Positions 362 to 13,993 of a stretch of 64,000 nucleotides of DNA are shown piece by piece. Every line of letters begins with the position of its first letter. Within the stretch, counting starts at the first letter, position 1. The position numbers and the translations under genes were made by a program. Below the pieces are notes generated by a model. It was not told the origin of the DNA, did no database searches, and saw only the letters and a program-made list of their open reading frames with translations. The stretch is from Geobacillus thermocatenulatus (GTDB lineage: Bacteria; Bacillota; Bacilli; Bacillales; Anoxybacillaceae): positions 1,179,164-1,243,163 of the forward strand of contig NZ_NEWK01000002.1 in the NCBI RefSeq assembly GCF_002217655.1. Direction: 5' to 3'.

Positions 362-385
362 GTTTCATCCTCTTCTCCCTATCAT

Positions 386-682: not shown

Positions 683-713
683 GATTCCTCCTTTCCTCTT
701 TGCTAATCATTTT

Positions 714-740
714 ATCTTTACTTAATCAAAAAGTAAAGAT
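714..740. promoter_or_regulatory. 10-bp perfect inverted repeat, probable antitoxin operator
   Basis: ATCTTTACTT and AAGTAAAGAT are exact complements separated by 7 bases. The repeat lies 32 bp upstream of the AbrB-like antitoxin start, where autorepression by the antitoxin or the toxin-antitoxin complex would be expected. Its role is inferred from symmetry and position only. Confidence 0.55.
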
Positions 741-781
741 CGTCTAATCCCCCAAGACTTCTATGGCAAGAACAAAAAAAC

Positions 782-1096
782 ATGTTCCCCAAATTTCCGA
801 AGCTGTTGAACAGCGCGGTCAACCGCCCGAAACAAAGCGCTTTCGGGCAGGACGCTGATCCAACCCTTTGGCTGAAGGCGGCAGCGTTATACGCCAGCCT
901 CTGCCAAAACCATCCGTTTCACAATGCCAATAAACGAACAGGCTTTGCCGCCATGAAACAGTTTCTTTGGCTAAACGGCTATCGCCTTGCCGCTCCGGAA
1001 AAAGAAGCAGAAGAATATACCGTGAAAATCGTAACCGATAAACCATCGATTGAGGAAATCGCGATGTGGATGGAAACGTGGGCGGAAAAAAGATGA
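782..1096 (+). pseudogene. Doc/Fic family remnant, N-terminus lost
   Basis: Residues about 40-58 contain the Fic/Doc motif as HPFHNANKRTGFAAM (consensus HPFxDGNKRT), and the C-terminal half aligns by eye with Doc (death-on-curing) proteins, which phosphorylate EF-Tu or AMPylate other targets. Doc proteins are about 125 residues and begin with a conserved region ending in LLESAxxRPxQ. Here only LLNSAVNRPKQS of that region is recognisable and nothing upstream in any frame supplies the missing 20-25 residues. There is no good ribosome binding site before the first ATG and no Phd-type antitoxin beside it. Asp in the motif is replaced by His/Asn. It is most likely a decaying fragment. Confidence 0.7.
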
Positions 1097-1198
1097 CCAA
1101 CGGCTTCTTCATTGTTCGTGATCCCTCCCCTCTTCACACATAATTCTCCTCCTCCGTCCCATACTAACGGTGACAATATCCGTCAAGGAGGGACCACG

Positions 1199-2062
1199 AT
1201 GGTCACAAAGCAACAAACGACACTGCCCCCGCAGCACCAAACGCGCCAGCCCGGCCTGCAAACGGAGATGAACCCGCAGCCGGTCACCATCAAAGACACG
1301 TATCAAGGAAGCGGCAAGCTCAAAAACAAAACCGCCATCATCAGCGGCGGCGACAGCGGCATCGGCCGGGCGGTCGCGGTCCATTTTGCCAAGGAAGGAG
1401 CCGATGTGGCGATTCTCTATCTCAACGAACATGAAGACGCCGAAGAAACGAAACGGCTCGTCGAGCAGGAAGGAAGACGGTGCCTGGCCATTGCGGGAGA
1501 CATTGGCGATGAAGCGTTTTGCAAAGAGGCGGTGAAACAGACGATCGAAGCGTTCGGCAAGCTCGATATCGTCGTCAATAACGCCGCCGAGCAGCACCCG
1601 CAGCCGAATTTTCTCAACATTACCGCCGAGCAGCTGGAAAAAACGTTTCGCACGAACGTGTTCGGCTGCTTTTTCCTAACGAAAGCGGCGCTCCCGCACT
1701 TAAAAAGCGGAAGCGCGATTATTAACACCGCTTCGATCACCGCCTACGAAGGAAACGAGCAACTCATCGACTACTCGGCGACAAAAGGGGCGATCGTCGC
1801 CTTCACCCGCTCGCTCGCCAAAGCGCTCGTCGGCCAAGGCATTCGCGTCAACGGCGTCGCCCCAGGCCCGATTTGGACGCCGCTCATCCCGTCGACGTTC
1901 AAAAGCGAGCAAGTCGCCACATTCGGTGCCAACACGCCGATGAAACGGCCCGGCCAGCCGTGCGAAGTCGCTCCGTGCTACGTCTTTTTGGCGAGCGACG
2001 AATCGTCGTACATGACCGGGCAAATGCTTCACGTCGACGGCGGAAAGTTCGTCAGCGGCTGA
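1199..2062 (+). CDS. Short-chain dehydrogenase/reductase (YdaD/YhxC type)
   Basis: A 287-residue classical SDR, NAD(P)H-dependent and cytosolic. The cofactor loop is AIISGGDSGIGRAVAVHFA near residue 45, the NNAAEQ structural motif follows near 130, and the catalytic Ser...YSATK is in SITAYEGNEQLIDYSATK. The 40-residue N-terminal extension before the Rossmann fold (a Gln/Pro-rich start, then PQPVTIKDTYQGSGKLKNK) is typical of the Bacillus general-stress SDRs YdaD, YhxC and YhxD. The start is set at 1199 by AAGGAGGG. An open frame continues upstream to 1112 but has no ribosome binding site. Substrate unknown. Confidence 0.88.
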   Translation: MVTKQQTTLPPQHQTRQPGLQTEMNPQPVTIKDTYQGSGKLKNKTAIISGGDSGIGRAVAVHFAKEGADVAILYLNEHEDAEETKRLVEQEGRRCLAIAGDIGDEAFCKEAVKQTIEAFGKLDIVVNNAAEQHPQPNFLNITAEQLEKTFRTNVFGCFFLTKAALPHLKSGSAIINTASITAYEGNEQLIDYSATKGAIVAFTRSLAKALVGQGIRVNGVAPGPIWTPLIPSTFKSEQVATFGANTPMKRPGQPCEVAPCYVFLASDESSYMTGQMLHVDGGKFVSG

Positions 2063-2092
2063 CCATCGCAGCCGCTGCGGTCAATCCTTTTT
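2054..2092 (+). terminator. Probable rho-independent terminator of the SDR gene
   Basis: AGCGGCTG pairs with CAGCCGCT across a 7-base loop overlapping the stop codon, followed after a short gap by CCTTTTT. The T-tract is not immediately adjacent, so confidence is moderate. Confidence 0.5.
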
Positions 2093-2204
2093 GACAAAAC
2101 TTCGTTACCTTTTCTTACAAAAATATAGAATTATTGTAAAGAAACCGATACGATAAAACTACGATGTTCCTCTACTTCTTTGCAAGGTGCCCCTCTTCTC
2201 TCAG

Positions 2205-2232
2205 TCCACCCCGGAATGGGGTGGATTTTTTT
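2205..2232 (+). terminator. Orphan rho-independent terminator
   Basis: TCCACCCC and GGGGTGGA flank a four-base loop and are followed by TTTTTTT. It sits just before a truncated histidine kinase and after no intact gene, so it may be the terminator of something now deleted. Confidence 0.75.
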
Positions 2233-2255
2233 GTATACAAAATTTATTTCCTCAC

Positions 2256-2870
2256 GTTAAAGCCAATTACGATGTACTATTGGCCAATCGCGAAGAAACA
2301 ATCGAGAGCCAAATCAAATGGCTCAACTATATTAAGATCGGAACGGACAGAATGGCAAAACTAATTAATGACCTATTGTCCCTAGCACAAATGGAAGATA
2401 TGAGTTTTGAAATACAAAAAGTTCCATTCAATATAAGCAACGCCATTCATGATGTGATTTTATCCATGGAAGCTGCAATGACCGATAAAAAGATTCAGCT
2501 CACCTGTTCCATTGAACCTGACGTCATGGTAAAAAGTGATCCAGAAAGAATCAAACAGGTTATCACCATTTTATTTGAGAATGCCGTCAAATATACAGAT
2601 GAAAAAGGGAAGATCGACTTATCTCTCAAAAAATCAAAACGTCATATTGTGTTTTCCATAAAAAATAGCGGGAAAGGGATCGCTAAACAAGACTTGCCAA
2701 AAATATTTGACAGATTTTATCGCGCCGATCCTTCTAGAACGCAAGAAACAGACGGCTATGGCTTAGGGCTGTCTATTGCAAAAGCCATCATAGAGAGGCT
2801 GGGCGGAGAAATTCGAGCGGAAAGCGTAGAAAATGAATATGCCGCTTTTACATGGACACTTGGACTTTAG
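2256..2870 (+). pseudogene. Sensor histidine kinase fragment (end of DHp plus HATPase_c)
   Basis: About 205 codons match the back half of an OmpR-partner histidine kinase: the end of the dimerisation helix (DRMAKLINDLLSLAQMED), the N box (ILFENAVKYT), G1 (FSIKNSGKGI), F (KIFDRFYRAD) and G2 (GYGLGLSIAKAI). The H-box with the phosphorylatable His, and everything before it, is missing. The match begins abruptly at VKANYDVLL, just after the orphan terminator. No response regulator is adjacent. Without the His it cannot be a normal kinase, so I treat it as an N-truncated pseudogene. Confidence 0.75.
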
Positions 2871-3166
2871 TGTATGGAGCACATCCCTTGTCAACAAGAA
2901 AGTGCATCCCCATCTTCTTCAACTGCTTGCAGGATAGCGGAACGGGGGACATTGTTGGCGGCTTTACTTGACAATGCCCCCTTACCCTGTTTTATCGTAA
3001 AATGTTCAAACAGCACACCAACATCATGAATTCATAAGACTGATCGCGAAAAAAAGAAACATCATCGGAATCGATGGATAGAACCTGAAAACGCCTCCGC
3101 GCTCCTCCTCTGTTTTAAGCAGTCAATAGTTCAAGGAATGCCACTGCATGTTTTCTATTCACCATC
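2871..3166. other. Intergenic stretch with no recognisable gene
   Basis: Short frames only, with no ribosome binding sites or known motifs. It lies between the kinase fragment and the 3' end of the transporter gene, and probably consists of decayed coding or mobile DNA. I see no clear terminator for the transporter operon here. Confidence 0.5.
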
Positions 3167-4510
3167 TCATGTGAAGAGGGTTTCCACCTCTTGTCCAGCA
3201 ACCGCTATGTCTCGTTTTTTCTTGCGCACGCAAAGAACAGCCAAAGAAGCGATAACGCCTGGCAGCGCAAAAGCAACAAAGCAGATGAAAATGGGGGCTT
3301 TCATTCCTAGCAGCACCCCGCCAAGCGTCGGGCCAACCATTCCTCCTAAGCGGCCGACGCCATTGGCCAATCCAATGCCCGTAGAGCGGACATGAGCGGG
3401 ATAATATTGCGAGACAAACGCATTCAACAAGCTTTGCGTTCCCATTGTACAAACACCAGCTACAGCGATGAGCGCATAAAGCCAAAACGTGTTGCTTTTC
3501 ATTCCCATCAACGACAAGCAAACAGCACCCACAATATACAAAGTCGCAATAAGCGGTTTGGAGCTTGCCATGCGATCGGCCATTCCGCCAATGATCAACG
3601 TCCCGATCAAGGCGCCTCCGTTTAGGAAAATAGCAAATACCAAGCTGGAAACAAGCGGATAACCGGCCGCTTCCATCAATTTCGGCAGCCATGTATTCAA
3701 GCCGTAAATCATGAGAAGCCCCATAAAATAGATTAGGCAAAACAAAATGGTCGTTACCGCTAAACCGTTTTGAAACAAACCGATAAACGGCACCTTTTCC
3801 TCTTTAACTGTTTGTCCGCCCACATCTGGAAGCGATTCATGGCTGTATGATTCATCGATTTTCCGCAGCACCTTCTCCAATTCCTCTCTTCTTCCACGCC
3901 GAAGCAAAAACTGGGGCGATTCCGGCAGCGCTTTCAACATAAACGGAACGATGACTAACGGGATGAAAGCGAACCATAAGACCGGACGCCATCCAATGTT
4001 GGGCAAACATACGACTGCGACAAGCGGCGCCAGGATCCCGCCTATTTGATTCCCGCATAACGCCAACGTAATCGACCGATTTTTATTCTTTTGCGGCATA
4101 TATTCCGTTAACAGGGAAATGACGGCAGGCAACGCTCCCCCAAACCCGATTCCAGCCAAAAAGCGGCACCATGAGAACAAGGTCGGTTCTTGGGCAAAAC
4201 CGGAAAGAGTTGTAGCAACACTAAAAAGCACGATCGATGCAACGATCAGCGGTTTTCGTCCAAAGCGATCTGCAAGCGCACTGAGCAAAATGGATCCAAA
4301 CAGCATGCCAAACAATCCATAGCTGCCGATCACCCCAGCCTGAACAGGACTGAGCCCCCACTCTTTCGATAAAACAGGAACGACAGAACCATAGACGACT
4401 AAGTCATACCCCTCAAATGAAATCGTAAACAGCCCCCATAGCAACAAAACAGCATGAAAACGGTTAAAATGACGCGTATTGAGAAACGCCTGTACAGCCC
4501 CTTGATTCAT
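3167..4510 (-). CDS. MFS transporter, aromatic acid:H+ symporter (AAHS) type
   Basis: A 447-residue, 12-helix major facilitator. The loop 2-3 signature is GSILLSALADRFGRKPLIV, and the N-terminal LLLWGLFTISFEGYDLVVYG carries the acidic residue in helix 1 typical of the AAHS family (PcaK, BenK, GalT), which import benzoates and hydroxybenzoates by proton symport. The start is chosen at 4510 because GGGGGAGAGG precedes it; longer frames upstream run into the dehydrogenase gene. It is the last gene of a five-gene operon, 25 bp after the dehydrogenase. Its neighbours suggest the cargo is the aromatic acid degraded by this cluster. Confidence 0.85.
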   Translation of the reverse strand: MNQGAVQAFLNTRHFNRFHAVLLLWGLFTISFEGYDLVVYGSVVPVLSKEWGLSPVQAGVIGSYGLFGMLFGSILLSALADRFGRKPLIVASIVLFSVATTLSGFAQEPTLFSWCRFLAGIGFGGALPAVISLLTEYMPQKNKNRSITLALCGNQIGGILAPLVAVVCLPNIGWRPVLWFAFIPLVIVPFMLKALPESPQFLLRRGRREELEKVLRKIDESYSHESLPDVGGQTVKEEKVPFIGLFQNGLAVTTILFCLIYFMGLLMIYGLNTWLPKLMEAAGYPLVSSLVFAIFLNGGALIGTLIIGGMADRMASSKPLIATLYIVGAVCLSLMGMKSNTFWLYALIAVAGVCTMGTQSLLNAFVSQYYPAHVRSTGIGLANGVGRLGGMVGPTLGGVLLGMKAPIFICFVAFALPGVIASLAVLCVRKKKRDIAVAGQEVETLFT

Positions 4511-4535
4511 CGTCTTCCTCTCCCCCATTGAAGAA

Positions 4536-5453
4536 TCAATTTTGATAGTCGTCCGTCTTTTTTCTATTTTTTCCTTCCAACATCTCCAGCAATGCATCAT
4601 AATGTTGCGGAAGATGGCCATTCCACAGCTCACGTATTCGGTGGTCGGCCAGCCATTGCAATTTTGCCGCCACGGCCTCAGACATTGTCGCATCAATGCC
4701 CAGCATGCCGAGCGTGGCCATCACTTCTCTCATTTCTGCCACCCGTCGCTCCGCATGAATAGCGGTGCGCGGCAACAGCAAATCCGCTGTTTCTTGCAGC
4801 GGCTGTGCGGTTATCGATTCATTTAGAGAAGCCAGCACCGTCTCCTCAACCCCATATATTCGGCTTGCATGCAACGTCTCAAGCAACAATGCCGAAACCC
4901 CTTTCATAAAAATGCTGCGAAACATTTTGATGGCTGACGAACTTCCAGGAGTTTCGCCAATGAATGTGACATTCATCCCCCATCCATTGGCTTCTTCTGC
5001 AAACCCGAGCGCCTTCGATCCGCTGACATAGATTGGCACTTTATGCTTTTTCAGAGGAACAGCGTCCATCACTGCCGCATCGATAAATGAGGCTCCTGTT
5101 TCGGCAATGCGTGCCGCCACTCGCTCCATTGTCATCGGAGAAGCCGCGTTCATATCAATGTAACAATGATCGGTATGCAAAAAGGGCTGAATGTTTTCCG
5201 CGATCATTTCCGCGACTTTCGCGCTGGCCGTGCAAAAAAGATGTATTGTGTTTTCGCAAAGTTCTTTCAAGGAAGCCGTGAGCGGGATGCCGAGCGCCGC
5301 TGCCCGCTCGCGGATCATAGCTCCATATAAAGGATGGTCGCTGTTTATGTCATAGGCGAAAATAGAGGTGATCTTCTTTTCTTCCAGCAGCCCGCTTGAC
5401 AGGGCAAAAGCCGCTTCTCCGAATCCAATAAATCCAATCGATGGTGCTATCAT
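4536..5453 (-). CDS. NAD(P)-dependent dehydrogenase, 6PGDH-like with DUF1932
   Basis: A 305-residue beta-hydroxyacid dehydrogenase-like enzyme. The Rossmann glycine motif is GFIGFGEAAFALSSGL at residues 6-21. The middle holds IDMNAASPMTMERVA and a DAAVMDAVP segment, and the C-terminal half (about 190-280) fits DUF1932, a helical domain seen in dehydrogenases of this superfamily. A strong GGGAG precedes the ATG. It lies 23 bp after the aldolase gene and 25 bp before the transporter. In the canonical protocatechuate 4,5-pathway an NADP-dependent dehydrogenase (LigC, a different family) oxidises the cyclised ring-cleavage product. This protein could fill that step here, by inference only. Confidence 0.75.
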   Translation of the reverse strand: MIAPSIGFIGFGEAAFALSSGLLEEKKITSIFAYDINSDHPLYGAMIRERAAALGIPLTASLKELCENTIHLFCTASAKVAEMIAENIQPFLHTDHCYIDMNAASPMTMERVAARIAETGASFIDAAVMDAVPLKKHKVPIYVSGSKALGFAEEANGWGMNVTFIGETPGSSSAIKMFRSIFMKGVSALLLETLHASRIYGVEETVLASLNESITAQPLQETADLLLPRTAIHAERRVAEMREVMATLGMLGIDATMSEAVAAKLQWLADHRIRELWNGHLPQHYDALLEMLEGKNRKKTDDYQN

Positions 5454-5476
5454 TTTTCATCTCCCGTTCAAAACGT

Positions 5477-6202
5477 TTATGTCACCTTGATTCCAAAAGA
5501 ACGCCGTTTTTGAAACGCTTCCTCGTTCTCGTAGTACACCACATTTTCTCTTTGCAATGTTGCTCGCAAATGGTAAAAATCTAAGCTCAGCTCGCCTTTT
5601 TCAATTTTCTGCTTTGTTTCCGCTTCTTTGTCAACGCGTTTTTTTGCCGCCTCCAATGATGAAGCCGCCTCATCTTTGCGAATCACTACCACTCCATCAT
5701 CGTCCGCCATGATGAGATCCCCTGGGTGGACGAGCACGCCAGCGCATACGGCGGGAGCGTTCACCCAACCGCCCCTCGCTTTTGTAGTGCCTTCCGGATG
5801 AACAGCTTTCGACCAAACTGGAAAGCCGAGTTCACGAATTTGTTTTACGTCGCGAATGCCAGCATCGATAATAAGCCCTTGTACGCCCCTCTTCATTAAC
5901 GCACGCACAATAAGCTCACCAATCATCCCATGAATTCCTTCGCCAATCGTTGCGACGACAAGTACGTCTCCAGGCTGACACACTTCAATGGCGGCATGGA
6001 TCATTAAATTATCTCCCGCGTAGCAAACGGCGGTCACTGCTGGCCCGCATATCGATATCCCCTGTTGAATCGGCTTCAGTTCAGGAGAAAGCAGCCCTTG
6101 CTTTCCTTGCGCTTCATACACGGTTGACACATCGTAATGTTTCAGTTCCTCGATGATTGACAAAGCTGGACGTTGAATGTTGCGAATGATGTATTTTTCC
6201 AT
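5477..6202 (-). CDS. RraA-family aldolase, probable 4-carboxy-4-hydroxy-2-oxoadipate aldolase (LigK/GalC type)
   Basis: A 241-residue class II pyruvate aldolase of the HMG/CHA aldolase family. Diagnostic segments are DVSTVYEAQGKQG, GPAVTAVCYAGDNLMIHAAIE, GEGIHGMIGELIVRALMKRG and DAGIRDVKQIRELGFPVW; the GE..G loop and R-D pair are the catalytic and metal-site residues. PGDLIMADDDGVVVI follows. The full C-terminal extension (FYHLRATLQ) matches catabolic LigK/GalC enzymes rather than the shorter RNase-E regulator RraA. The reaction is cleavage of 4-carboxy-4-hydroxy-2-oxoadipate to pyruvate and oxaloacetate. The start codon shares one base with the stop of the hydratase gene, a tight coupling that fits consecutive steps. 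Confidence 0.85.
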   Translation of the reverse strand: MEKYIIRNIQRPALSIIEELKHYDVSTVYEAQGKQGLLSPELKPIQQGISICGPAVTAVCYAGDNLMIHAAIEVCQPGDVLVVATIGEGIHGMIGELIVRALMKRGVQGLIIDAGIRDVKQIRELGFPVWSKAVHPEGTTKARGGWVNAPAVCAGVLVHPGDLIMADDDGVVVIRKDEAASSLEAAKKRVDKEAETKQKIEKGELSLDFYHLRATLQRENVVYYENEEAFQKRRSFGIKVT

Positions 6203-6930
6203 CAGATAAGCTCACCCCCTACAAGAGGGAAAAAACGGCTAAACGCTTCCGCGTATTGATATTGTTGATTGCCCGAGCACCGGCGTGCATGGTTGCCGCG
6301 TAAAGCTGCTTTAGCTGCATAATAGTCAATTAAATGTTTTTGCGCCTTGAAACAATTCATCGCTGCATATTTTTGTTCATACGTATCGGTAATATCAACG
6401 ATCACTTCCGGCTTGAAATCACTAATCTCCGATTGGTGCGGTTCAAAGCCAAACAGTTTCGGTTGCTTGATTTTCGGCAAATCGACATCGCGCACCCCAG
6501 CCGATGTCGCCAACACGGACGCTTCAAACACAAAACGGGAAACGGTTTCATGGTCGGGATTGAACGCATCACGCGGCCCATGTGTTAAAATCACATTCGG
6601 GCGAACCTCACGAATCTTTCTTACGAATTGCAACGTCCGCTCCGGCGTGATGGTCATATGATAATCTTCGTAATCCCAAATCTCGTAATCCTTCACTCCC
6701 AAGCATTCTGCCGCGGCTTCGATTTCACTTCGGCGTACCGCTTTAACGTTTTCAAGCGTCTGTCCTTCCACCTTCCATAAATCGTTTGATTCACCACGCG
6801 CTCCATAGCTCAAAATCACAAGCGACACATTGGCTCCAGCCTTTACATACTTCGCAATCGTCCCGCCGCCCCGCCAAACAAAATCAGCAGCATGGGCGCT
6901 GACGACTAATAGGTTTGTGTGTTGATCCAT
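6202..6930 (-). CDS. PIG-L/LmbE-family hydratase, probable 4-oxalomesaconate hydratase (GalB type)
   Basis: A 242-residue zinc enzyme. Near the N-terminus SAHAADFVWRGGG replaces the AHPDDE of ordinary LmbE deacetylases. This AHxADFVWR form is the one I associate with GalB of Pseudomonas putida, where His and Asp bind zinc. THGPRDAFNPDHETV supplies the third metal His. GalB hydrates 4-oxalomesaconate to the substrate of the adjacent LigK/GalC aldolase, and the gene overlaps the aldolase gene by one base. A GATAGGAGGAG ribosome site fixes the start. An amidase role for the same fold is the alternative, but context argues against it. Confidence 0.8.
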   Translation of the reverse strand: MDQHTNLLVVSAHAADFVWRGGGTIAKYVKAGANVSLVILSYGARGESNDLWKVEGQTLENVKAVRRSEIEAAAECLGVKDYEIWDYEDYHMTITPERTLQFVRKIREVRPNVILTHGPRDAFNPDHETVSRFVFEASVLATSAGVRDVDLPKIKQPKLFGFEPHQSEISDFKPEVIVDITDTYEQKYAAMNCFKAQKHLIDYYAAKAALRGNHARRCSGNQQYQYAEAFSRFFPLVGGELI

Positions 6931-6979
6931 GGCTTCTCCTCCTATCGAACACTTATTCTCTTTCTATAACCGGTTGCGC

Positions 6980-7885
6980 TTACACTTTCGAAGCGACTTC
7001 TTCCACGAGAATGGCTGTATTGATGACAGTCATTCGTTTGACTTCGTCCGGTGCAAAACCACCCTGCTCGATCAGTTGACGAACAAACTCGAGAAGCCCC
7101 TCATCGGGATAAACATTGCTTGGTTGCCCCAAATCGGTGGATAAAATGCAATGTTCGGGACCAACATACCGAATTTCCGCAAATACCGACTCCCACGTCG
7201 TCTTTCCTGATGCCGGTGTTGTAAAGCAATGTTCCATGATCGCTCCCATCTCAGCAAGCTCTTTTTGTTCCTCTTTGGACAAAGCGATCGATGGAAAGTT
7301 CGGATGGGTGATGACGATTTTCCGCACACCGACCGCACGAGCTTCTTTCACCAGTTCATAAATTTCCTGTTTGCCCACATGTCCCGTCGCCAAAATCAAA
7401 TCGTATTTTGCCATCACTTCCAAACAGTCGTACACTTCTTTTTTCAAACGATGGTTTTCATCTAAAATTCGAATGGTTGGCAACGCCTTTCCTTGCGCCT
7501 CAAACTCTAGACGCAACTTCGCCCAATGTGGCAATTTCGCAGGAGGGCTGTTGATGAAATGTTCTTGTTCGTTCGCAGCGTCAAACGTCGGCATCCACAC
7601 GATTTTCGCTCCGTCTCTTGCCGCCATTTCCACCGCAACAGCGTTTAACCCTCCAACTGTATTGTTTAGGCAGATTGCTCCAACCGCTTGAAATCCAGGA
7701 AACTGGCGATTGACCAAAGCTGCTCGTTCAGCGGTGCAGAAATAATGGGACTTAATGCCGTATCCCTTCATGCCAAGCCGTTGAAGCCGTGCTGCCATCT
7801 CAAAATCATCCAGTTTTCTCGGCAACACGTCAGGTCCGGTATGAACATGAAGATCATAAGCATCCTTCAGCAACTCTTCATACAA
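6980..7885 (-). CDS. DUF6282 family metallohydrolase-like protein
   Basis: A 301-residue amidohydrolase/PHP-like protein. It opens with AYDLHVHTGPD (H13-x-H15, a first-strand metal pair), followed by GIKSHYFCTAERA, GGLNAVAVEMAARDGAKIVWMP, LATGHVGKQEIYELV and VITHPNFPS, then LSTDLGQPSNVYPDEG. These give His and Asp residues at the end of successive strands as in TIM-barrel metal-dependent hydrolases. I recognise it as DUF6282; no function is established that I know of. It is the first gene of the operon, 49 bp before the hydratase, and could be the lactonase step (LigI-like chemistry). Its promoter region has palindromic operators. Confidence 0.7.
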   Translation of the reverse strand: MYEELLKDAYDLHVHTGPDVLPRKLDDFEMAARLQRLGMKGYGIKSHYFCTAERAALVNRQFPGFQAVGAICLNNTVGGLNAVAVEMAARDGAKIVWMPTFDAANEQEHFINSPPAKLPHWAKLRLEFEAQGKALPTIRILDENHRLKKEVYDCLEVMAKYDLILATGHVGKQEIYELVKEARAVGVRKIVITHPNFPSIALSKEEQKELAEMGAIMEHCFTTPASGKTTWESVFAEIRYVGPEHCILSTDLGQPSNVYPDEGLLEFVRQLIEQGGFAPDEVKRMTVINTAILVEEVASKV

Positions 7886-7905
7886 ACAGCATCCCTCTTT
7901 CTTTG

Positions 7906-7924
7906 AACAATATTGTTAAACAAT
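7906..7924. promoter_or_regulatory. Operator upstream of the catabolic operon
   Basis: Two overlapping palindromes: AACAATATTGTT at 7906-7917 and ATTGTTAAACAAT at 7912-7924. The second is the same core found at the dioxygenase promoter and, in the other orientation, at the GntR gene. It lies 21 bp upstream of the DUF6282 start codon, between it and the rest of the promoter region, as expected for repressor control. Confidence 0.65.
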
Positions 7925-7991
7925 TTTGTTTATGATTGAATTATAAAATATTATTCTTCATCATGTCAACAAAATCATTCAAAAATTTCGT

Positions 7992-8034
7992 AAAAAAAAA
8001 AGCTGGTTTCAGCTTTGTCGCTGAATAAACCAGC
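7992..8034 (-). terminator. Rho-independent terminator downstream of the GntR gene and element
   Basis: On the minus strand GCTGGTTT-ATTCAGC pairs with GCTG-AAACCAGC and is followed by a run of about nine T. It would stop transcription coming from the GntR regulator before the catabolic operon promoter. Confidence 0.8.
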
Positions 8035-8264
8035 ATGTTCCTCCACTCTTACCGGACTCTTTTAACAATCTCTATACATGCTCATTAAAAAATTAACATT
8101 TGCCTTCTCCTGCAACGAACTGCCTTCCCCCATGGCTCAGCTCGCAGATTGAGCCTACAGGGTCTTTGGAGGAAGTGCTGCAACGCTCAGGGTGTGCAGG
8201 ATAACGGAGAGGTTAACTCTTCATGTTGCATGTATATCGTTGGAGGCCAGACCATTTCATCCTG
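8035..8264. other. Non-coding stretch between terminator and mobile element
   Basis: No reading frame with recognisable motifs. The sequence directly beside the palindromic element (8100-8264) has several short inverted segments, such as GCTCAGCTCGCAGATTGAGC, and may be decayed IS material, but I cannot assign it. Confidence 0.4.
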
Positions 8265-8482
8265 GTAAACTACCCACCACCTACACTTCGCTGAGAGGTG
8301 GGAGCTTCAGGCGACTTGTGCGTGTTCGCCGAACGGCAAGCCACGCACAAGAACCCTTTACGCTTCCCTTCGTTCCGAAGGTGTCCGTTCTAACCATATT
8401 CTATCGTATTGGTTGGCTAAGCCAATCGAATTTCTCCTTTTTTCCCTTCGTTTCAAAGTGGGAGACTTCTTTCGGAAAGATG
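8265..8482 (-). mobile_element. Palindromic IS605-derived non-coding element, copy A
   Basis: 218 bp without a gene, near-identical over most of its length to the element at 26427-26648. Read on the minus strand it begins CATCTTTCCGAAAGAAG right after TTTAG, carries an end hairpin (imperfect here), an internal region with CCTTCGGAACGAAGG, and a second terminal hairpin ending in AGGTGGTGGGTAGTTTAC. Subterminal hairpins, no terminal inverted repeats, no target duplication and a fixed 5' tetra/pentanucleotide are hallmarks of IS200/IS605-type single-strand transposition. It resembles the palindrome-associated elements described in Geobacillus and would need TnpA supplied in trans. Its left end coincides with the stop codon of the GntR gene. 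Confidence 0.75.
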
Positions 8483-9127
8483 CTAAACTAAAAAGGCAAA
8501 GTGCTCTTCGATCGTTTTTCGGATATTGGCAATATGACGGCGAACAGCGTTTTCCGCTTCCTCAGCATTTCGCTCTTTTAACGCGCGATAAATTTGCTGA
8601 TGTTCTTTCGCTGAATTTTCCTTTCGTCCTGGAATCAAAATCGTCCGCAAATGGTAGCGAAGAAGTTGGCCTTTGATCAAGTTGACCATTTCCACCGCCT
8701 GTTGATTGTCGCTCGCTCGATAAATCATATCATGAAACCGTTTGTTAAGCTGTGAATATTCTTCAAAATCCCCCATATCTAAATATGTCTCCATCTTCTT
8801 ACAAATATCTTCCATTTGTCGAAGGTCTTCCTCCGTCAACCGTTCCACCGCACTGCGGATGATCAGTCCTTCCAATGCCTCACGGATCTCAAAATAGTTG
8901 GAAACTTCTTTGACAGTAAATGATTTCACCGTTGCCCCTTTGTTTTCTTCCATGTCTACTAAATGTTCCTGCTCCAATTTAAATAACGCTTTTTTGACCG
9001 TATTTCGGCTGACGCCGATTTGCGCAGACAGCTCGCTTTCGTTTAACTTTTGCGAAGGTAAAAACGTGCCGTTCATAATTCGTTCTTTAATATATTCATA
9101 AGCTACATCCATCGGTCTTTTGGCCAT
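8483..9127 (-). CDS. GntR/FadR-type (FCD) transcriptional regulator
   Basis: A 214-residue regulator. The winged helix is at residues 5-70 (DVAYEYIKERIMNG, then LNESELSAQIGVSRNTVKKAL), and the all-helical FCD effector domain (EIREALEGLIIRSAVERL, LNKRFHDMIYRASDN, EHQQIYRALKERNAEEAENAVRRHI) carries the usual Asp/Arg/His metal-site positions. The start at 9127 is favoured by GGAG eight bases upstream; longer starts lack a site. It sits between the catabolic operon and the dioxygenase gene, with palindromes at all three promoters, so it is the likely repressor of the island. The stop TAG lies inside the TTTAG at which element A is inserted, so a few C-terminal residues may have been altered. Confidence 0.87.
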   Translation of the reverse strand: MAKRPMDVAYEYIKERIMNGTFLPSQKLNESELSAQIGVSRNTVKKALFKLEQEHLVDMEENKGATVKSFTVKEVSNYFEIREALEGLIIRSAVERLTEEDLRQMEDICKKMETYLDMGDFEEYSQLNKRFHDMIYRASDNQQAVEMVNLIKGQLLRYHLRTILIPGRKENSAKEHQQIYRALKERNAEEAENAVRRHIANIRKTIEEHFAFLV

Positions 9128-9148
9128 TGTCATCGCTCCATCTCCATT

Positions 9149-9159
9149 TTGTTTAACAA
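9149..9159. promoter_or_regulatory. Operator at the GntR gene's own promoter
   Basis: TTGTTTAACAA, the reverse complement of the TTGTTAAACAA core at the other two promoters, lies 22 bp upstream of the GntR start codon and suggests autoregulation. Confidence 0.6.
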
Positions 9160-9267
9160 TATGATTATACATTTATTTTCAATGATGAAATTGAATTCGT
9201 CAATGTTTCGCAAAACGTTTTCTTTGCGCAGCATTTAGCGGATGACAACTGAATATGAAAACGCTTA

Positions 9268-9296
9268 TTGACATAACTTTTTGCATTTTGTATAGT
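9268..9296 (+). promoter_or_regulatory. Sigma-A promoter of the dioxygenase gene
   Basis: TTGACA at 9268-9273 and TATAGT at 9291-9296 with a 17-base spacer. The start of transcription would fall inside the operator at 9299-9313. Confidence 0.8.
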
Positions 9297-9298
9297 TA

Positions 9299-9313
9299 AA
9301 TTGTTAAACAATT
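9299..9313. promoter_or_regulatory. Operator overlapping the dioxygenase transcription start
   Basis: AATTGTTAAACAATT is a perfect palindrome about a central A. It begins two bases after the -10 box, an arrangement expected for repression by the GntR regulator. Confidence 0.7.
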
Positions 9314-9340
9314 ATGTTTAATTATCGCGGAGGGGAGACC

Positions 9341-10312
9341 ATGCCAACAACAAAAAAGCTCGACTTCGATATCGCCCATCTTGGTCATGTAGAACTGTTG
9401 ACGCCAAAATTCGAAGAAAGTGTTCATTTTTTTACTGATATTCTCGGAATGCAAGAAGTGTATCGAAACAGCCAGTCTGCATATTTGCGTTGCTGGGGGG
9501 ATTACGAAGAATATTCCTTAAAGTTGACAAAAGCTGAACATGCTGGAATCGGCCATACGGCATTGAGAACGATAAGCCTTGAAGCCTTGGAAAGAAAAGT
9601 GCATGCCATTAAAGAAACAGGACAAGGAATCGGATGGATTGACGGCGATGAAGGACACGGCAAAGCATATCGTTTTTACAGCCCGGACGGCCATGTGATG
9701 GAATTGTACTATGAGACTAATTTTTATGCGGCGCCCGATCATCTCAAGCCTTATTGGAAAAATCAGCCACAAAAATTCACGGGACATGGAGCCGCTGTCA
9801 AGACATTAGACCATATTAACTTTTTATCTTCCAATCCCGAAAAAGACGGGGAGTTTGCGGAAACGATCCTTGGTCTTCGTCTGACGGAACAAATCGTGAT
9901 GAATGACGGCCGAAAAACAGGAATTTGGTATCGAGCCACGAACAAGTCGTATGATATTGTTTATACAAAAGATGCGACCGGATCAAGAGGACGGCTTCAT
10001 CATATCGCTTTTGCTGTGGAAAGCATGGCCGATATCGTGAGAGCGGCCAATGTATTTGTAGATCACGGCGTTTACATCGAGCTTTCTCCAAGCAAGCATG
10101 CCATCAATCAAACGTATACGACATATGTGTACGAACCCGGCGGCAATCGAATTGAAGTATGTTCCGGAGGCTATCTTGTCTTGGCTCCCGATTGGAAACC
10201 AATTACATGGACCGAAGAAGAGAGAAAACGAGGGCAAGCTTGGGGAAACAAAACGGTGGAAACATTCCATACTTACGGGACACCAAATGTTCCAAGCGAA
10301 GTAAAACAATAA
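9341..10312 (+). CDS. Type I extradiol ring-cleavage dioxygenase (two VOC domains)
   Basis: A 323-residue non-heme Fe(II) dioxygenase of the vicinal oxygen chelate superfamily. The N-terminal domain starts at IAHLGHVELLTPKFEESVHFF, and the C-terminal catalytic domain begins at TLDHINFLSSN. The 2-His-1-carboxylate triad is visible as H158 (LDHINF), H220/H221 (RLHHIAF) and E272 (GGNRIEV), with the Tyr of TTYVYEPGG near 263. It is similar in build to catechol 2,3-dioxygenases such as PheB and to PraA-type protocatechuate 2,3-dioxygenases. The start at 9341 has GCGGAGGGGAG; an upstream ATG at 9314 has none. It is divergent from the aldolase/hydratase operon and shares its operators. Whether it cleaves 2,3 or 4,5 cannot be told by eye. 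Confidence 0.88.
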   Translation: MPTTKKLDFDIAHLGHVELLTPKFEESVHFFTDILGMQEVYRNSQSAYLRCWGDYEEYSLKLTKAEHAGIGHTALRTISLEALERKVHAIKETGQGIGWIDGDEGHGKAYRFYSPDGHVMELYYETNFYAAPDHLKPYWKNQPQKFTGHGAAVKTLDHINFLSSNPEKDGEFAETILGLRLTEQIVMNDGRKTGIWYRATNKSYDIVYTKDATGSRGRLHHIAFAVESMADIVRAANVFVDHGVYIELSPSKHAINQTYTTYVYEPGGNRIEVCSGGYLVLAPDWKPITWTEEERKRGQAWGNKTVETFHTYGTPNVPSEVKQ

Positions 10313-10320
10313 CAACATTC

Positions 10321-10367
10321 AGCTCCTCTCAACGCGAGTGCCATCAGCGAAAAGAGGAGCTCTTTTT
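10321..10367 (+). terminator. Rho-independent terminator of the dioxygenase gene
   Basis: AGCTCCTCT and AGAGGAGCT pair around a 23-base loop and are followed by CTTTTTC. Confidence 0.75.
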
Positions 10368-10379
10368 CATTTCCCTCCT

Positions 10380-10718
10380 TCAATCTTCGCTCGATGCTGG
10401 CTGTGCCGCTTGTTTCACCGCCTTCACCTCATAATGTCCGACTTCGACATTAAGGATGTACTCCGGCTTCGCTTCGTTTCGTCTCTGTTTATGTCCGGCG
10501 ATATGAGCATCACTTTTCTCCCATTTTTTCCAATGCTCCTCCGATTCCCATGTGATCAAAATGACGACTTCCTCATCGCCGCGGCGCGCTTTTTTAACCA
10601 ATATTTTTAAATCAACAAACCCCTCTTGCTGTTCGATGATCCCAGGCTTTCGAAACTGCTCAGCCACTTGGTCGGCGAATCCTTCGGCCACTGTGATTTT
10701 ACGCATTTGAACGAACAT
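10380..10718 (-). CDS. HmoA/IsdG-like heme-degrading monooxygenase (ABM fold)
   Basis: A 112-residue ferredoxin-like alpha/beta protein of the antibiotic biosynthesis monooxygenase superfamily. MFVQMRKITVAEGFADQVAEQF and VVILITWESEEHWKKWEKSDAH match the HmoA/HmoB branch of Bacillus, which opens heme to release iron. The Trp in WESEEHWKKW and the following DAH match the ligand-pocket residues by eye. The acidic/Ala-rich tail (QAAQPASSED) is unusual. It is preceded by GGGAGAGG and stands alone, convergent with the dioxygenase gene; a general quinol monooxygenase role is the alternative. Confidence 0.75.
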   Translation of the reverse strand: MFVQMRKITVAEGFADQVAEQFRKPGIIEQQEGFVDLKILVKKARRGDEEVVILITWESEEHWKKWEKSDAHIAGHKQRRNEAKPEYILNVEVGHYEVKAVKQAAQPASSED

Positions 10719-10753
10719 AAATCCTCTCCCTTTCTCTGTTGATGATGATGCGA

Positions 10754-11128
10754 TTATTGTTCGCTGCTGTCCTCATCGTTGCGCTGTTCATCGATGGGGG
10801 CATCTCCGTCGCGGTTTTGAACTCCCCATATACTGCTCAGCTCTTCGTCATGAATATCAAACGATTGGATGAATTCATTGATCACCATCTCGATCGCTTT
10901 CAACTCTCCTGTCAGCACGGGATGAATCGATTGAAGCTCCGGCGATTGCAGTTGTTGTTTCAATGTCTCCCTTTTGACGTACAGCCGTGCTAAAAATTCG
11001 AGCGCTCGCCCGCGACGGAACGTTTTGGCGCCGCGATGCGGCCCTTTGTGCATATGCGCGCCTTTCCATGCGGGATGGCCTTCGAATGGATGTCCATGTC
11101 CATGTCCATGAAAAAAATGTCCATGCAT
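10754..11128 (-). CDS. His-rich small protein of unknown function
   Basis: A 124-residue protein with two parts. The first 35 residues are extremely His/Gly-rich (HGHFFHGHGHGHPFEGHP, then HMHKGPHRG), a likely metal-binding segment. A helical domain follows (about 40-100: ALEFLARLYVKRETLKQQLQ onward) with alternating charged and Leu residues, then an acidic tail. No signal peptide or membrane segment is seen. It starts 4 bp after the stop of the O-methyltransferase gene, whose last codons contain its ribosome binding site AAGGAGGAAAG, so the two genes are co-transcribed and translationally linked. Function not known. Confidence 0.7.
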   Translation of the reverse strand: MHGHFFHGHGHGHPFEGHPAWKGAHMHKGPHRGAKTFRRGRALEFLARLYVKRETLKQQLQSPELQSIHPVLTGELKAIEMVINEFIQSFDIHDEELSSIWGVQNRDGDAPIDEQRNDEDSSEQ

Positions 11129-11132
11129 GCCG

Positions 11133-11828
11133 TCATCTTTCCTCCTTCGCCGCTTTCACTCTTGCCACCGTCACACCGTCCCCAATGGGGAGAAACAGGG
11201 CATCAAGCGCTGGATGCCGAGCAACGGTCTCATTGAATTGCCTCATGATTTCCCCTCGCCGTCCCAAGGCGCGCGGAGTGCCGATGCCGCTTCCTGCCAT
11301 GGTGTTGTCCGCTGCGATGATCGCGCCCGGATTGGCGAGGCGGAGGCAATAATCGAGATAATGAACATAGTTTTCTTTGTCCGCATCAATGAAGAAGAAG
11401 TCGAAGCGCGAGCCTTGGGCAACAAGCTCTTCAAGGCTTTCCAAGGCTGGTCCGACCATGTACACGACTTGACCGCCAAAACCGGCTTTTTCTAGGTTCT
11501 GTTTTGCCAAGCGGGCATAGTCCGCCACAAGCTCAAGCGACGTCAACATTCCATCCGGCCCAAGCCCGCGCGCAAGACAAACACCGCTGTAACCTCCAAG
11601 CGCTCCGATTTCCAACACGTTTTTGGCGCCGGAGATGGCGACAAGCATCGTCAACAGTTTTCCTGTCGCCGGCGAAACAGAAATCGACGGAAGGCCGTTT
11701 TCCTCCATTGAGCGTCGGATGCTGGCAAGCACTTCATCTTGCGGAGCAAACTGTTCATTCATGTAGCGGTTTAATTGCCGAAACAACTCCCATCCTTCAC
11801 GGCGATCGTGCGGATGCTTCGGTTCCAT
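11133..11828 (-). CDS. Class I SAM-dependent O-methyltransferase (CCoAOMT-like)
   Basis: A 231-residue methyltransferase_3 protein. The SAM loop is VLEIGALGGYSGVCLARGL near residue 75, the acidic strand end is TSLELVADYARLA, and the metal/catalytic loop is FDFFFIDADKENYVHYL followed by PGAIIAADNTMAGSG. This is the pattern of cation-dependent catechol and caffeoyl-CoA O-methyltransferases; some bacterial members modify tRNA or small catechols. GAAGGAGGGG sets the start. It lies upstream of the His-rich gene in a two-gene operon, and a 16-bp palindrome sits in its promoter region. Confidence 0.82.
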   Translation of the reverse strand: MEPKHPHDRREGWELFRQLNRYMNEQFAPQDEVLASIRRSMEENGLPSISVSPATGKLLTMLVAISGAKNVLEIGALGGYSGVCLARGLGPDGMLTSLELVADYARLAKQNLEKAGFGGQVVYMVGPALESLEELVAQGSRFDFFFIDADKENYVHYLDYCLRLANPGAIIAADNTMAGSGIGTPRALGRRGEIMRQFNETVARHPALDALFLPIGDGVTVARVKAAKEER

Positions 11829-11853
11829 GTTTCCCCTCCTTCAAACCTTTTTC

Positions 11854-11869
11854 GTATACAATTGTATAC
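11854..11869. promoter_or_regulatory. Perfect 16-bp palindrome upstream of the methyltransferase
   Basis: GTATACAATTGTATAC lies 25 bp upstream of the start codon. The symmetry and position suggest a repressor operator (GntR- or TetR-like sites have this form). No regulator gene for it is adjacent. Confidence 0.5.
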
Positions 11870-11892
11870 AAATATAAACAAAACGTCAATTT

Positions 11893-13164
11893 TTAATCCC
11901 CCGTCCGCTTATATTTCCATCTCGCTGCCGGAAACGTCACTTGAAACCGCGTTCCTTCGCCAAGTTTGCTTTCCACCTTCACCTTGCCATGATGTTGATC
12001 AATAATCCACTTGGCGATCGCTAATCCAAGACCGGCTCCATCCGATTGGGAGCGCGCCTTGTCGCTTTGATAAAATCGGTCGAAAATGCGAGGGAGATCT
12101 TCAGTTGGGATGCCGATGCCGTCATCTTCGACTTCCACCACGACCGATGAGGCAAAACGACGGCATGCAAGGCGAATGTGCCCGCCTTCCATCGTATATT
12201 TCAAGGCATTGTCAAGCAAAATGACGATCAATTGATGGATGCGTTCACGGTCGCCCACCCACTCAATAGGGATTTGCGCTTCGACGCTCATCGTTTTCTG
12301 TTGGTACGAAGCAATCTCGCTGTACTGTTCGCCAATGTCGCGAACCAATTCATCCAGCCGAAACGCTTCTTTTTGCATTTCCAGCTGATTCGAGTCTGAA
12401 CGCGCCAAAGTGAGCAGCTGGGAAACGAGCCGCGAGAGGCGGCGGCATTCTTTGGCGATCACAGAAATATCGACGCTTTTCTCTTCAATGGTCGCTTTCG
12501 GAGAACGAAAAAGCGCATCCGTTTTTGCCTGAATGACAGAAAGAGGCGTGCGCAATTCATGGGAGGCGTCGGAGACAAATTGCTGCTGTTTTTTCCACGC
12601 CGCTTGAATGGGAACGAGCGCCCGGCCAGCCAGAAAATAGCCTGCCGCGATGGCAAACAGAGCGCTCAGTATGCATCCAGCTGCAATCATGAACATCAAT
12701 TCGTCAAGCAGCTCGCGTTCAGAGTTCATATTGCGCAGCATTTGCACCGTTATCGGGCCAAACGCCGTATTCACTTCAACAGCCAACGTCCGAAAATAGA
12801 GATGGCCTACGTTCACCTCATACAGTTCATCAAGCCTTTCTGGGGGAGTGAGCGGCAGCCCGGTGAAAAAAGAAGCATCGCGGGTCATGCCGACCATTTC
12901 TCCTTTCTCGTTCCAGATGACCACCAACAGCCGCGGGTCGCGCAACAGTGGATCATGAAAGAGCGGATCTCCTGACAACGCATCATCCTTGCGCCATGGC
13001 CCGCCCTGCCTAATCCGCTCCGCCAATCGTTCAAGCGGAACATCGGCCGCATGGTACAGACGCTCCTGCATATACACGTACAGCACAACGCCAAGCGCGC
13101 TAATCACGAAAAACACGACGAACGAGTTGACGAATGTCAAACGCCAAAGGGTTTTGTGAAACAT
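11893..13164 (-). CDS. Sensor histidine kinase
   Basis: A 423-residue membrane kinase. TM1 is at about 11-30, an extracytoplasmic sensor domain of about 125 residues follows, and TM2 is at about 156-180. The H-box is FVSDASHELRTPLS (H202), then the N box LLDNALKYT, G1 VEDDGIGIP, F box IFDRFYQSD and G2 GAGLGLAIAKWI. No HAMP domain of normal length is obvious between TM2 and the H-box. It follows the response regulator gene by 9 bp and lies beside the MacAB-like genes, which it may control. The signal is unknown; extracytoplasmic sensors next to such pumps often respond to peptides or envelope stress. Confidence 0.88.
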   Translation of the reverse strand: MFHKTLWRLTFVNSFVVFFVISALGVVLYVYMQERLYHAADVPLERLAERIRQGGPWRKDDALSGDPLFHDPLLRDPRLLVVIWNEKGEMVGMTRDASFFTGLPLTPPERLDELYEVNVGHLYFRTLAVEVNTAFGPITVQMLRNMNSERELLDELMFMIAAGCILSALFAIAAGYFLAGRALVPIQAAWKKQQQFVSDASHELRTPLSVIQAKTDALFRSPKATIEEKSVDISVIAKECRRLSRLVSQLLTLARSDSNQLEMQKEAFRLDELVRDIGEQYSEIASYQQKTMSVEAQIPIEWVGDRERIHQLIVILLDNALKYTMEGGHIRLACRRFASSVVVEVEDDGIGIPTEDLPRIFDRFYQSDKARSQSDGAGLGLAIAKWIIDQHHGKVKVESKLGEGTRFQVTFPAARWKYKRTGD

Positions 13165-13173
13165 GGCACATTT

Positions 13174-13851: not shown

Positions 13852-13950
13852 CTATCTTCCCTCCTCTTTTTTAACCTATGGCTGTAAGGAACTTCCCTTC
13901 GCAGTGAAAGGCAACAGCTAAGCACCATACATGCCGTATCGGGAAAGGAA

Positions 13951-13990
13951 AAACAAAGCGCCGCATGATGCGAACGCTTTGTTTTTCTTT
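13951..13990. terminator. Bidirectional-looking terminator after the efflux operon
   Basis: AAACAAAGCG and CGCTTTGTTT pair around a 14-base loop. The minus strand continues TTTTTCC and the plus strand TTTTTCTTTCTTTT. On the minus strand it follows the permease stop directly. Confidence 0.8.
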
Positions 13991-13993
13991 CTT

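What the first reader, a model, noticed from the sequence alone, without database searches (positions are those of the whole stretch)
3167..10312. Possible non-orthologous protocatechuate/gallate-type cleavage pathway
Seen: a five-gene operon (DUF6282 hydrolase, AHAADF-type LmbE protein, RraA-type aldolase, DUF1932 dehydrogenase, AAHS transporter), a GntR/FCD regulator, and a divergent two-domain VOC dioxygenase, tied by shared operators. Known: in the LigAB-C-I-J-K and GalA-D-B-C routes, ring cleavage is followed by dehydrogenation and lactone hydrolysis, or by tautomerisation, then by hydration (GalB or LigJ) and aldol cleavage (LigK/GalC). Inferred: the last two steps are GalB/GalC-like, while the first three would be done by families not used in those pathways (VOC dioxygenase for LigAB, DUF1932 for LigC, DUF6282 for LigI). 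That would be a complete, independently assembled route in a thermophilic Gram-positive. The substrate could also be a related carboxylated catechol.
Basis: partly seen in the sequence, partly recalled or inferred. Interest (0 to 1): 0.72.

Follow-up and report, generated by a model that had tools for sequence, protein, structure and literature searches.

The report
Alternative gallate-type ring-cleavage pathway genes
A Gram-positive bacterium carries a compact gene set that probably breaks open the ring of a plant-derived acid such as gallate with an enzyme family not expected for this job, and then uses the known last two steps of the gallate pathway.

Summary
The gene set is real: seven genes at 3167-10312, with near-identical palindromic operators before its three transcription units. 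The last two enzymes look like GalB hydratase and CHA aldolase. The block FCD / DUF6282 / GalB-like / CHA aldolase / DUF1932 recurs in Bacillota and Thermus. Of 15 loci with DUF6282 next to the hydratase, 14 have CHA aldolase and 13 DUF1932.

The dioxygenase belongs to one well-supported VOC clade, found near CHA aldolase in four phyla. In some Proteobacteria it takes the place of GalA in gallate-type clusters, in one beside a tannase-family gene. Its members have Tyr where 18 of 18 comparison enzymes have the second-sphere His.

So "VOC enzyme feeding GalB/GalC" is well supported, gallate being likelier than protocatechuate. DUF1932 = LigC is not supported: DUF1932 also sits in GalA clusters, which need no LigC, and in a locus that has LigC. 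DUF6282 = LigI is unproven; by position it replaces the tautomerase GalD. Eight of 13 block-bearing genomes have no VOC match, so the block also serves some other, probably imported, acid. No activity has been measured.

The parts
3167..4510 (-). MFS transporter, closest to the aromatic acid/H+ symport family
   Evidence: TIGR00895 343.3 bits, below its cutoff of 418.55; MFS_1 9e-64
4536..5453 (-). DUF1932 NAD(P)-dependent dehydrogenase-like protein, step unknown
   Evidence: PF09130 + PF03446; best solved relatives 4EZB, 3QSG, 1I36 carry no established function in their names
5477..6202 (-). CHA aldolase (GalC/LigK type, RraA-like fold)
   Evidence: NF006731 over cutoff; PDB 3NOJ E 4.2e-67; Arg-123/Asp-124 of that enzyme aligned with R117/D118
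6202..6930 (-). GalB-like 4-oxalomesaconate hydratase (PIG-L family)
   Evidence: best solved relative 5CGZ '4-oxalmesaconate hydratase' E 1.7e-46, next best 2.7e-9
6980..7885 (-). DUF6282 amidohydrolase-fold protein; candidate OMA tautomerase (GalD stand-in) or PDC lactonase (LigI stand-in)
   Evidence: PF19799 246 bits; no convincing PDB sequence relative; model pLDDT 91.5 matches amidohydrolase-superfamily folds
7912..7924 (.). operator ATTGTTAAACAAT upstream of DUF6282
8483..9172 (-). GntR/FCD regulator (start may be a later ATG)
   Evidence: FCD 2.9e-33, GntR 1.8e-16
9148..9160 (.). operator TTTGTTTAACAAT at the FCD gene start
9300..9312 (.). operator ATTGTTAAACAAT just upstream of the VOC gene
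9314..10312 (+). two-domain VOC (type I) extradiol dioxygenase of the CHA-aldolase-linked clade; start probably 9341
   Evidence: TIGR03211 over cutoff; near-identical solved chain 9WGJ starts at this Met; clade 100/98; clade residues Lys211, Tyr213, Arg304, Gln308, His319

Best explanation
The genes import and break down a 3,4-dihydroxybenzoate-type acid, most likely gallate. The VOC enzyme opens the ring. With gallate this gives 4-oxalomesaconate (OMA) / 4-carboxy-2-hydroxymuconate directly. DUF6282 most likely brings this to the form that the hydratase uses, as GalD does in Proteobacteria. [quoted passage not shown] The CHA aldolase splits CHA into pyruvate and oxaloacetate. The MFS protein takes up the acid. 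The FCD protein controls all three transcription units through ATTGTTNAACAAT-type operators. DUF1932 is a dehydrogenase tied to this lower pathway in many bacteria, probably bringing a further compound into the OMA/CHA pool. Shown: gene families, clade membership, neighbourhoods and operator sequences. Inferred: every reaction, the substrate, the repressor role and the uptake role; the pathway chemistry itself is established knowledge of the gallate route. My odds: product enters GalB/GalC 0.85; substrate gallate 0.5, protocatechuate 0.3, other 0.2; DUF6282 as GalD-like 0.45, LigI-like 0.35, other 0.2.
For: GalB and CHA aldolase identity. 14 CHA-aldolase-linked VOCs form one clade, 100/98 support, against 18 others. 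Of 12 contexts of VOC hits from the list, 11 have CHA aldolase (BLAST in 110 and 111); 9 of the 12 have GalD, and in these 9 BLAST found no LigC or LigI homologue and no DUF6282. Pantoea piersonii has an aromatic-acid MFS, VOC, LysR, galB, galC, galD and DUF1932, the make-up of the Klebsiella aerogenes cluster with gallate dioxygenase, the dioxygenase exchanged. A tannase/feruloyl-esterase-family gene (PF07519) is next to galD-galC-VOC-galB in Agrobacterium. A VOC-GalB-CHA aldolase run without DUF6282, DUF1932 or GalD exists in genome G623. PrpF/GalD is absent from the window genome. A lone VOC gene with the same operator in G623, which has the block on another contig.
Against: TIGR03211 and the depositors of 9WGJ name this protein a catechol dioxygenase; its measured activity is unknown to me. 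Thermus oshimai keeps a PobA-type hydroxylase and an aldehyde dehydrogenase beside the set, which fits protocatechuate. Eight of 13 block-bearing genomes have no VOC match, so DUF6282 and DUF1932 cannot serve only this ring cleavage. One VOC of the clade type (Chimaeribacter) has no CHA aldolase within 8 kb; in Methylobacterium and Roseomonas the aldolase is about 7-8 kb away, and Roseomonas also has LigB-type, LigI-like and alpha/beta-hydrolase genes nearby. A beta-propeller lactonase-family gene stands beside the VOC on Pantoea p174224. DUF1932 has no clear step in a gallate route. A tannase, cupin-type or intradiol dioxygenase was not searched for in the window genome.
Confidence: 0.6

Rival explanations
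1. Protocatechuate 4,5-cleavage: VOC makes the semialdehyde CHMS, DUF1932 oxidises its hemiacetal to PDC, DUF6282 opens the lactone, then GalB-like hydratase and CHA aldolase.
For: Five steps and five enzymes match in number. Thermus oshimai has a PobA-type gene (NF006091 470 against 351; AENYVG motif with Tyr-385, numbering recalled) and an aldehyde dehydrogenase beside the same set. DUF6282 has an amidohydrolase-superfamily fold, hits including phosphotriesterase-like lactonases.
Against: DUF1932 sits in GalA clusters that need no such step and in loci with a LigC-type gene. Nine VOC clusters with GalD have no LigC or LigI homologue. The window genome has no PobA at E <= 1e-20. Blocks exist in genomes without a VOC match. 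The Thermus PobA is below the stricter TIGR02360 cutoff (402.9 against 538.7).
Confidence: 0.22
2. Ordinary catechol 2,3-dioxygenase placed next to an unrelated acid-degradation operon; the neighbourhood is incidental.
For: TIGR03211 over cutoff and the PDB name of 9WGJ. Eight of 13 block-bearing genomes lack a VOC match.
Against: Same operator in front of VOC and operon; VOC linked to CHA aldolase in four phyla; separate clade with Tyr213 for His; no meta-cleavage hydrolase recognised among the ORFs of window 1-14000 (read by eye).
Confidence: 0.1
3. The block's native substrate is a non-aromatic tricarboxylic-type acid; the VOC was recruited secondarily to feed the same GalB/CHA aldolase steps.
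For: Block with TctABC, TRAP-TAXI or ABC-type transporters and no VOC match in 8 of 13 genomes; Rhizobium daejeonense has GalB, CHA aldolase, DUF1932, TctABC and GalD with no dioxygenase annotated in the stretch; DUF1932 with an RraA-family gene and a citrate symporter or TRAP genes, without GalB, in Priestia filamentosa and Rhizobium Pop5.
Against: Such transporters can also carry aromatic acids (recalled); in the window the transporter is closest to the aromatic-acid type; no candidate acid is identified.
Confidence: 0.3

Closest known systems
Gallate pathway GalA-GalD-GalB-GalC (Pseudomonas putida type)
   Same: GalB-like hydratase and CHA aldolase; aromatic-acid-type MFS; same gene company in Proteobacteria
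   Different: VOC enzyme instead of LigB-type GalA; DUF6282 instead of GalD in Bacillota and Thermus; DUF1932 present
Protocatechuate 4,5-cleavage pathway LigAB-LigC-LigI-LigJ-LigK
   Same: same lower intermediates OMA and CHA; CHA aldolase
   Different: no LigB-type, LigC or LigI homologue in the window set by BLAST; hydratase of PIG-L type instead of LigJ
Catechol 2,3-dioxygenase family TIGR03211 / PDB 9WGJ
   Same: fold and model score; 9WGJ is near-identical to the window protein (315 of 322 aligned residues, counted by eye)
   Different: clade-specific Lys211/Tyr213/Arg304/Gln308/His319; CHA-aldolase company
Homoprotocatechuate pathway HpaD-HpaE-HpaF-HpaG-HpaH-HpaI
   Same: dioxygenase, then isomerase, hydratase and pyruvate aldolase logic (recalled)
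   Different: different hydratase and aldolase families; TIGR02295 HpaD below cutoff (182.9 against 321.4)

Membership tests
4-oxalomesaconate hydratase GalB | closest to GalB among PIG-L proteins, active-site motifs kept | tested here: met
   5CGZ E 1.7e-46 against 2.7e-9 for the next; AH-x-ADF and GES segments aligned; activity not tested
CHA/HMG aldolase | curated model over cutoff and catalytic Arg-123/Asp-124 | tested here: met
   NF006731 283.3 against 179; R117/D118 aligned; the stricter TIGR02798 is not reached (244.2 against 304.5)
Gallate dioxygenase GalA / LigB-type | LigB domain PF02900 | tested here: not met
   VOC (Glyoxalase) domains only; the genome's single PF02900 hit lies elsewhere (C2:540163)
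Catechol 2,3-dioxygenase TIGR03211 | score over cutoff | tested here: met
   330.6 against 320.2; of five other clade members scanned, two are over (L022, L094) and three under (L021, L100, L115)
Type I (VOC) extradiol dioxygenases | second-sphere His (His200 of BfHPCD, numbering recalled) | tested here: not met
   Tyr213 in the window, His in 18 of 18 comparison rows; metal-site His and Glu columns kept
LigC (CHMS dehydrogenase) | Gfo/Idh/MocA family | tested here: not met
   DUF1932 + NAD_binding_2
LigI (PDC hydrolase) | PDC lactonase activity | not testable with these tools
   only the amidohydrolase-superfamily fold is shared; no BLAST hit of an annotated LigI-like protein in the block loci
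OMA tautomerase GalD | PrpF family PF04303 | tested here: not met
   DUF6282 is a different family; PF04303 absent from the window genome; functional equivalence untested
Aromatic acid/H+ symporter AAHS | TIGR00895 over cutoff | tested here: not met
   343.3 against 418.55; still the best-scoring model

The most novel reading that the evidence does not exclude
A widespread clade of VOC enzymes, with Tyr in place of the usual second-sphere His, is a second, unrelated kind of gallate dioxygenase, replacing GalA across four phyla; and DUF6282 is a new amidohydrolase-fold 4-oxalomesaconate tautomerase replacing GalD in Bacillota and Thermus.
Probability: 0.33. Interest if true: 0.75.

Novelty: new variant of a known kind. 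Interest (0 to 1): 0.6.

Why it matters
Gallate is the building block of hydrolysable tannins (established knowledge). The gallate dioxygenases I saw in print are LigB-type (AromaDeg, PMC4250580, passages; DesB, PMC3962378, listing and abstract start). A VOC clade doing this job would change the annotation of many 'catechol 2,3-dioxygenases', help explain tannin use by plant-associated bacteria, offer possibly thermostable enzymes for making OMA-type chemicals, and give a first function to DUF6282 and a context for DUF1932.

Tried and rejected
DUF1932 as LigC and DUF6282 as LigI were weighed and lowered (see the rivals). The idea that the VOC is specific for homoprotocatechuate was lowered because, by motif alignment from memory, the two BfHPCD arginines that bind the side-chain carboxylate are Leu and Gly here; this alignment comes from no call. 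Fold search of the DUF6282 model gave amidohydrolase-superfamily hits in the 50 rows shown and does not separate lactonase, hydratase and isomerase; LigJ appears at rank 50.

Library searches found no paper holding DUF6282, two holding DUF1932, both on other matters by title, and none holding 9WGJ. None of the listed papers, by title and abstract start, described a VOC gallate dioxygenase: 13 listed of 14; 11 of 11; 15 of 83; 15 of 30. One search (20 of 20 listed) gave no paper, by title, on this set in Bacillales. The library lacks most subscription journals. One search was badly framed and useless; the phrases with '2 3-dioxygenase' matched no listed paper. Papers: PMC8091115, PMC5065237 and PMC4250580 seen as passages; the others as listings with abstract starts only.

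Dropped rows: the tree left out L024 (partial VOC), L044 (remnant), L054-L056, L110 and L120 (second copies of loci already in) and VOC hits under 140 bits; L153, L154 and L157-L161 came later and are not in the tree. Contexts of VOC hits were fetched for 12 of 312 matching plasmid records, all from the 45 listed; the rest of the list was not opened as VOC hits, most being near-duplicates or unannotated. DUF1932 contexts were fetched for 11 of 223 records: all 11 have an RraA-family gene, 9 of them an annotated or BLAST-supported CHA aldolase; two (L102, L103) lack GalB and GalD. PIG-L contexts: 3 of 119 records; DUF6282: 2 of 47.
Full report
Observation. The RraA-like and PIG-L genes share base 6202, and the five genes from DUF6282 to the MFS lie on one strand. 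An 11-base palindrome, TTGTTWAACAA, occurs exactly three times in the 64 kb window, once in front of each of the three transcription units (DUF6282, FCD, VOC). With one mismatch allowed the excess is weak: 4 against 1.19 expected, reached in 3 of 100 shuffles. The 13-base form ATTGTTNAACAAT is found twice exactly, against 0.02 expected and in 0 of 100 shuffles. The shared-operator claim is confirmed as a sequence fact; that FCD binds it is inferred.

What the enzymes look like. The PIG-L protein is closest among solved structures to GalB, 5CGZ '4-oxalmesaconate hydratase' (1.7e-46; the next hit is at 2.7e-9). The RraA-like protein passes the CHA aldolase model NF006731 and matches 3NOJ. It keeps the Arg and Asp aligned with Arg-123 and Asp-124, which the P. 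putida enzyme uses for the pyruvate enolate and the metal (PMC5065237, passages). DUF1932's best solved relatives have no established function in their names. DUF6282 has no convincing solved relative by sequence. Its model from 22 sequences (pLDDT 91.5) matches amidohydrolase-superfamily barrels such as phosphotriesterase homologues, N-acetylglucosamine-6-phosphate deacetylase, lactonases and, at rank 50, LigJ. Invariant His13, His15, His169, His194 and Asp251 fit a metal site (the motif reading is recalled). The VOC protein passes the catechol 2,3-dioxygenase model and is near-identical to PDB 9WGJ, named 'Catechol 1,2-dioxygenase' there.

Recurrence of the block. I examined 30 loci with a DUF6282 of at least 50% identity: the window, L021-L041, L094, L095 and L146-L151. 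DUF6282 lies next to a PIG-L gene in 15 of the 30: window, L021, L022, L023, L025, L026, L027, L030, L040, L094, L095, L146, L147, L148, L149. In these 15 an FCD gene is found in 15, CHA aldolase in 14 (the L095 record ends), DUF1932 in 13 (not seen in L040 and L095), the VOC in 5 (window, L021, L022, L023, L094), and a homologue of GalD, LigC or LigI in none. The operator (A or T at each end) is in 12 of the 15 (not in L022, L040, L094) and in 1 of the other 15 loci. Of the other 15 loci, 13 have an HpcH/HpaI-type aldolase and none has PIG-L or CHA aldolase. More distant DUF6282 proteins (L005-L020, 32-38%) showed no PIG-L or CHA aldolase neighbour, but only 1.5 kb on each side was visible. 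The gene is rare: 19 of 397 genomes of the window's order have any match at E <= 1e-20, and 8 of 392 of the order of P. naphthalenovorans at E <= 1e-70.

The dioxygenase clade. With 14 VOCs that I had seen near CHA aldolase and 18 others, the 14 form one clade with 100/98 support, and the window protein lies inside it. In the nearest other loci, read by eye in stretches of about 4 kb, neighbours include flavin reductases, acyl-CoA-dehydrogenase-like monooxygenases and, in one, a meta-cleavage-type hydrolase. Among the positions invariant in the clade and different in its sister clade are Lys211, Tyr213, Arg304, Gln308 and His319; Lys211 also occurs in three more distant rows. Tyr213 replaces a His found in all 18 others. 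By motif it corresponds to His200 of homoprotocatechuate 2,3-dioxygenase (numbering recalled). L153 and L154 and the seven rows keep all five residues.

Substrate clues. I took contexts of 12 VOC hits from the list (H91, H92, H93, H104, H106, H107, H109, H110, H112, H114, H118, H123). CHA aldolase is within the stretch in 11 of 12 (10 by BLAST, the eleventh, H92, by annotation at the edge); the miss is Chimaeribacter (H123). GalD is in 9 of 12, DUF1932 in 9 of 12, DUF6282 in none, a LigI homologue in one (H92) and a LigC homologue in none. Pantoea piersonii carries an aromatic-acid MFS, VOC, LysR, galB, galC, galD and DUF1932. Klebsiella aerogenes has the same company with gallate dioxygenase in place of the VOC. 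In Agrobacterium tumefaciens 186 a tannase/feruloyl-esterase-family gene (PF07519, 438 bits) lies next to galD-galC-VOC-galB. In genome G623 a VOC-PIG-L-CHA aldolase run has neither DUF6282 nor DUF1932 nor GalD. These point to a ring-cleavage product that the hydratase can use without a LigC/LigI detour, which is the case for gallate. Results that blur this: a beta-propeller lactonase-family gene beside one VOC, an aldehyde dehydrogenase in the Roseibium cluster, and LigB-type and LigI-like genes in the Roseomonas stretch.

Clues for protocatechuate. Thermus oshimai plasmid pTHEOS01 has the whole set together with a PobA-type hydroxylase and an aldehyde dehydrogenase. The hydroxylase passes the subfamily model NF006091 but not the equivalog TIGR02360 and keeps the AENYVG motif with Tyr-385 (numbering recalled). 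Brevibacillus massiliensis (L022) has Rieske dioxygenase subunits and a formaldehyde dehydrogenase over its NCBIfam cutoff (755 against 637), as would fit demethylation of methoxylated acids. The window genome has no PobA match at E <= 1e-20, no Ring_hydroxyl_A protein and no PrpF/GalD, so the acid itself is probably taken up. Tannases and other dioxygenase types were not searched for there.

Why DUF1932 is probably not LigC. DUF1932 occurs with galB, galC and galD in Pantoea At-9b, with GalA clusters in K. aerogenes, Pseudomonas oryzihabitans and Burkholderia pyrrocinia, and in loci that hold a LigC-type Gfo/Idh/MocA gene, Novosphingobium US6-1 and Azospirillum TSH58. In Rhizobium Pop5 and Priestia filamentosa it stands with an RraA-family gene only. 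It is also in blocks whose genomes have no VOC match. Of 13 block-bearing genomes searched, 5 have a close VOC (G000, G404, G405, G406, G623) and 8 have none at E <= 1e-20 (G408, G409, G410, G413, G423, G592, G614, G619). LigB-type proteins are absent from G408, G410 and G413; G409 has one, G423 only a sub-threshold match, and G592, G614 and G619 were not searched for them. Something else probably enters the block there, brought in by TctABC, TRAP-TAXI or ABC-type transporters.

Why DUF6282 may stand for GalD. Rhizobium daejeonense has GalB, CHA aldolase, DUF1932, TctABC and GalD; Virgibacillus L030 has DUF6282, GalB, CHA aldolase, DUF1932 and TctABC. The VOC clusters show the same exchange (against 35 and the window). 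The exclusion is local: three of nine block genomes searched (G405, G406, G413) have a PrpF-family gene elsewhere.

History. Among 14 genomes of the genus only the window's own has an intact VOC of this clade; G398 has a 39% relative that falls outside it. One relative (G012) has stretches matching window 691-2231 and 10149-11170 next to each other, with the 3' end of the VOC left as a remnant: the cluster was lost there.

Verdict. The anatomy is that of an OMA/CHA meta-cleavage pathway with a VOC ring-cleaving enzyme, gallate favoured over protocatechuate. No reaction has been measured.

Noticed in passing
   Followed up: partly
L028, L029, L031-L035, L037-L039, L041, L150, L151: A second DUF6282 company: an HpcH/HpaI-type aldolase in all 13 of these loci, often with an MFS or TRAP transporter, and in 5 a 300-aa protein type (L028:7028-7930) without any Pfam match.
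   Followed up: partly
window 11133-11828 (-) and 10380-10718 (-): An O-methyltransferase (PF01596) and an ABM-family protein directly beyond the VOC gene; in the same-genus genome G012 the ABM stretch is kept next to the VOC remnant, while most of the methyltransferase stretch has no match.
   Followed up: partly
window 2187-2870 (+): A 227-aa histidine-kinase-like ORF that seems to lack its N-terminal part; seen in the translation only.
   Followed up: no
window 386-1096: An AbrB-like small ORF and a Fic/Doc-like ORF with HPFHNANKRTG, looking like pieces of toxin-antitoxin modules (recalled motif).
   Followed up: no
L156:9550-10543: A lone VOC gene of the clade type beside inositol-catabolism-like genes (read by eye), carrying the ATTGTTGAACAAT operator at its start while the block lies on another contig.
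   Followed up: yes
L152:6856-9684 (same-genus genome G012): Syntenic site where the cluster has been lost and the 3' end of the VOC gene remains.
   Followed up: yes
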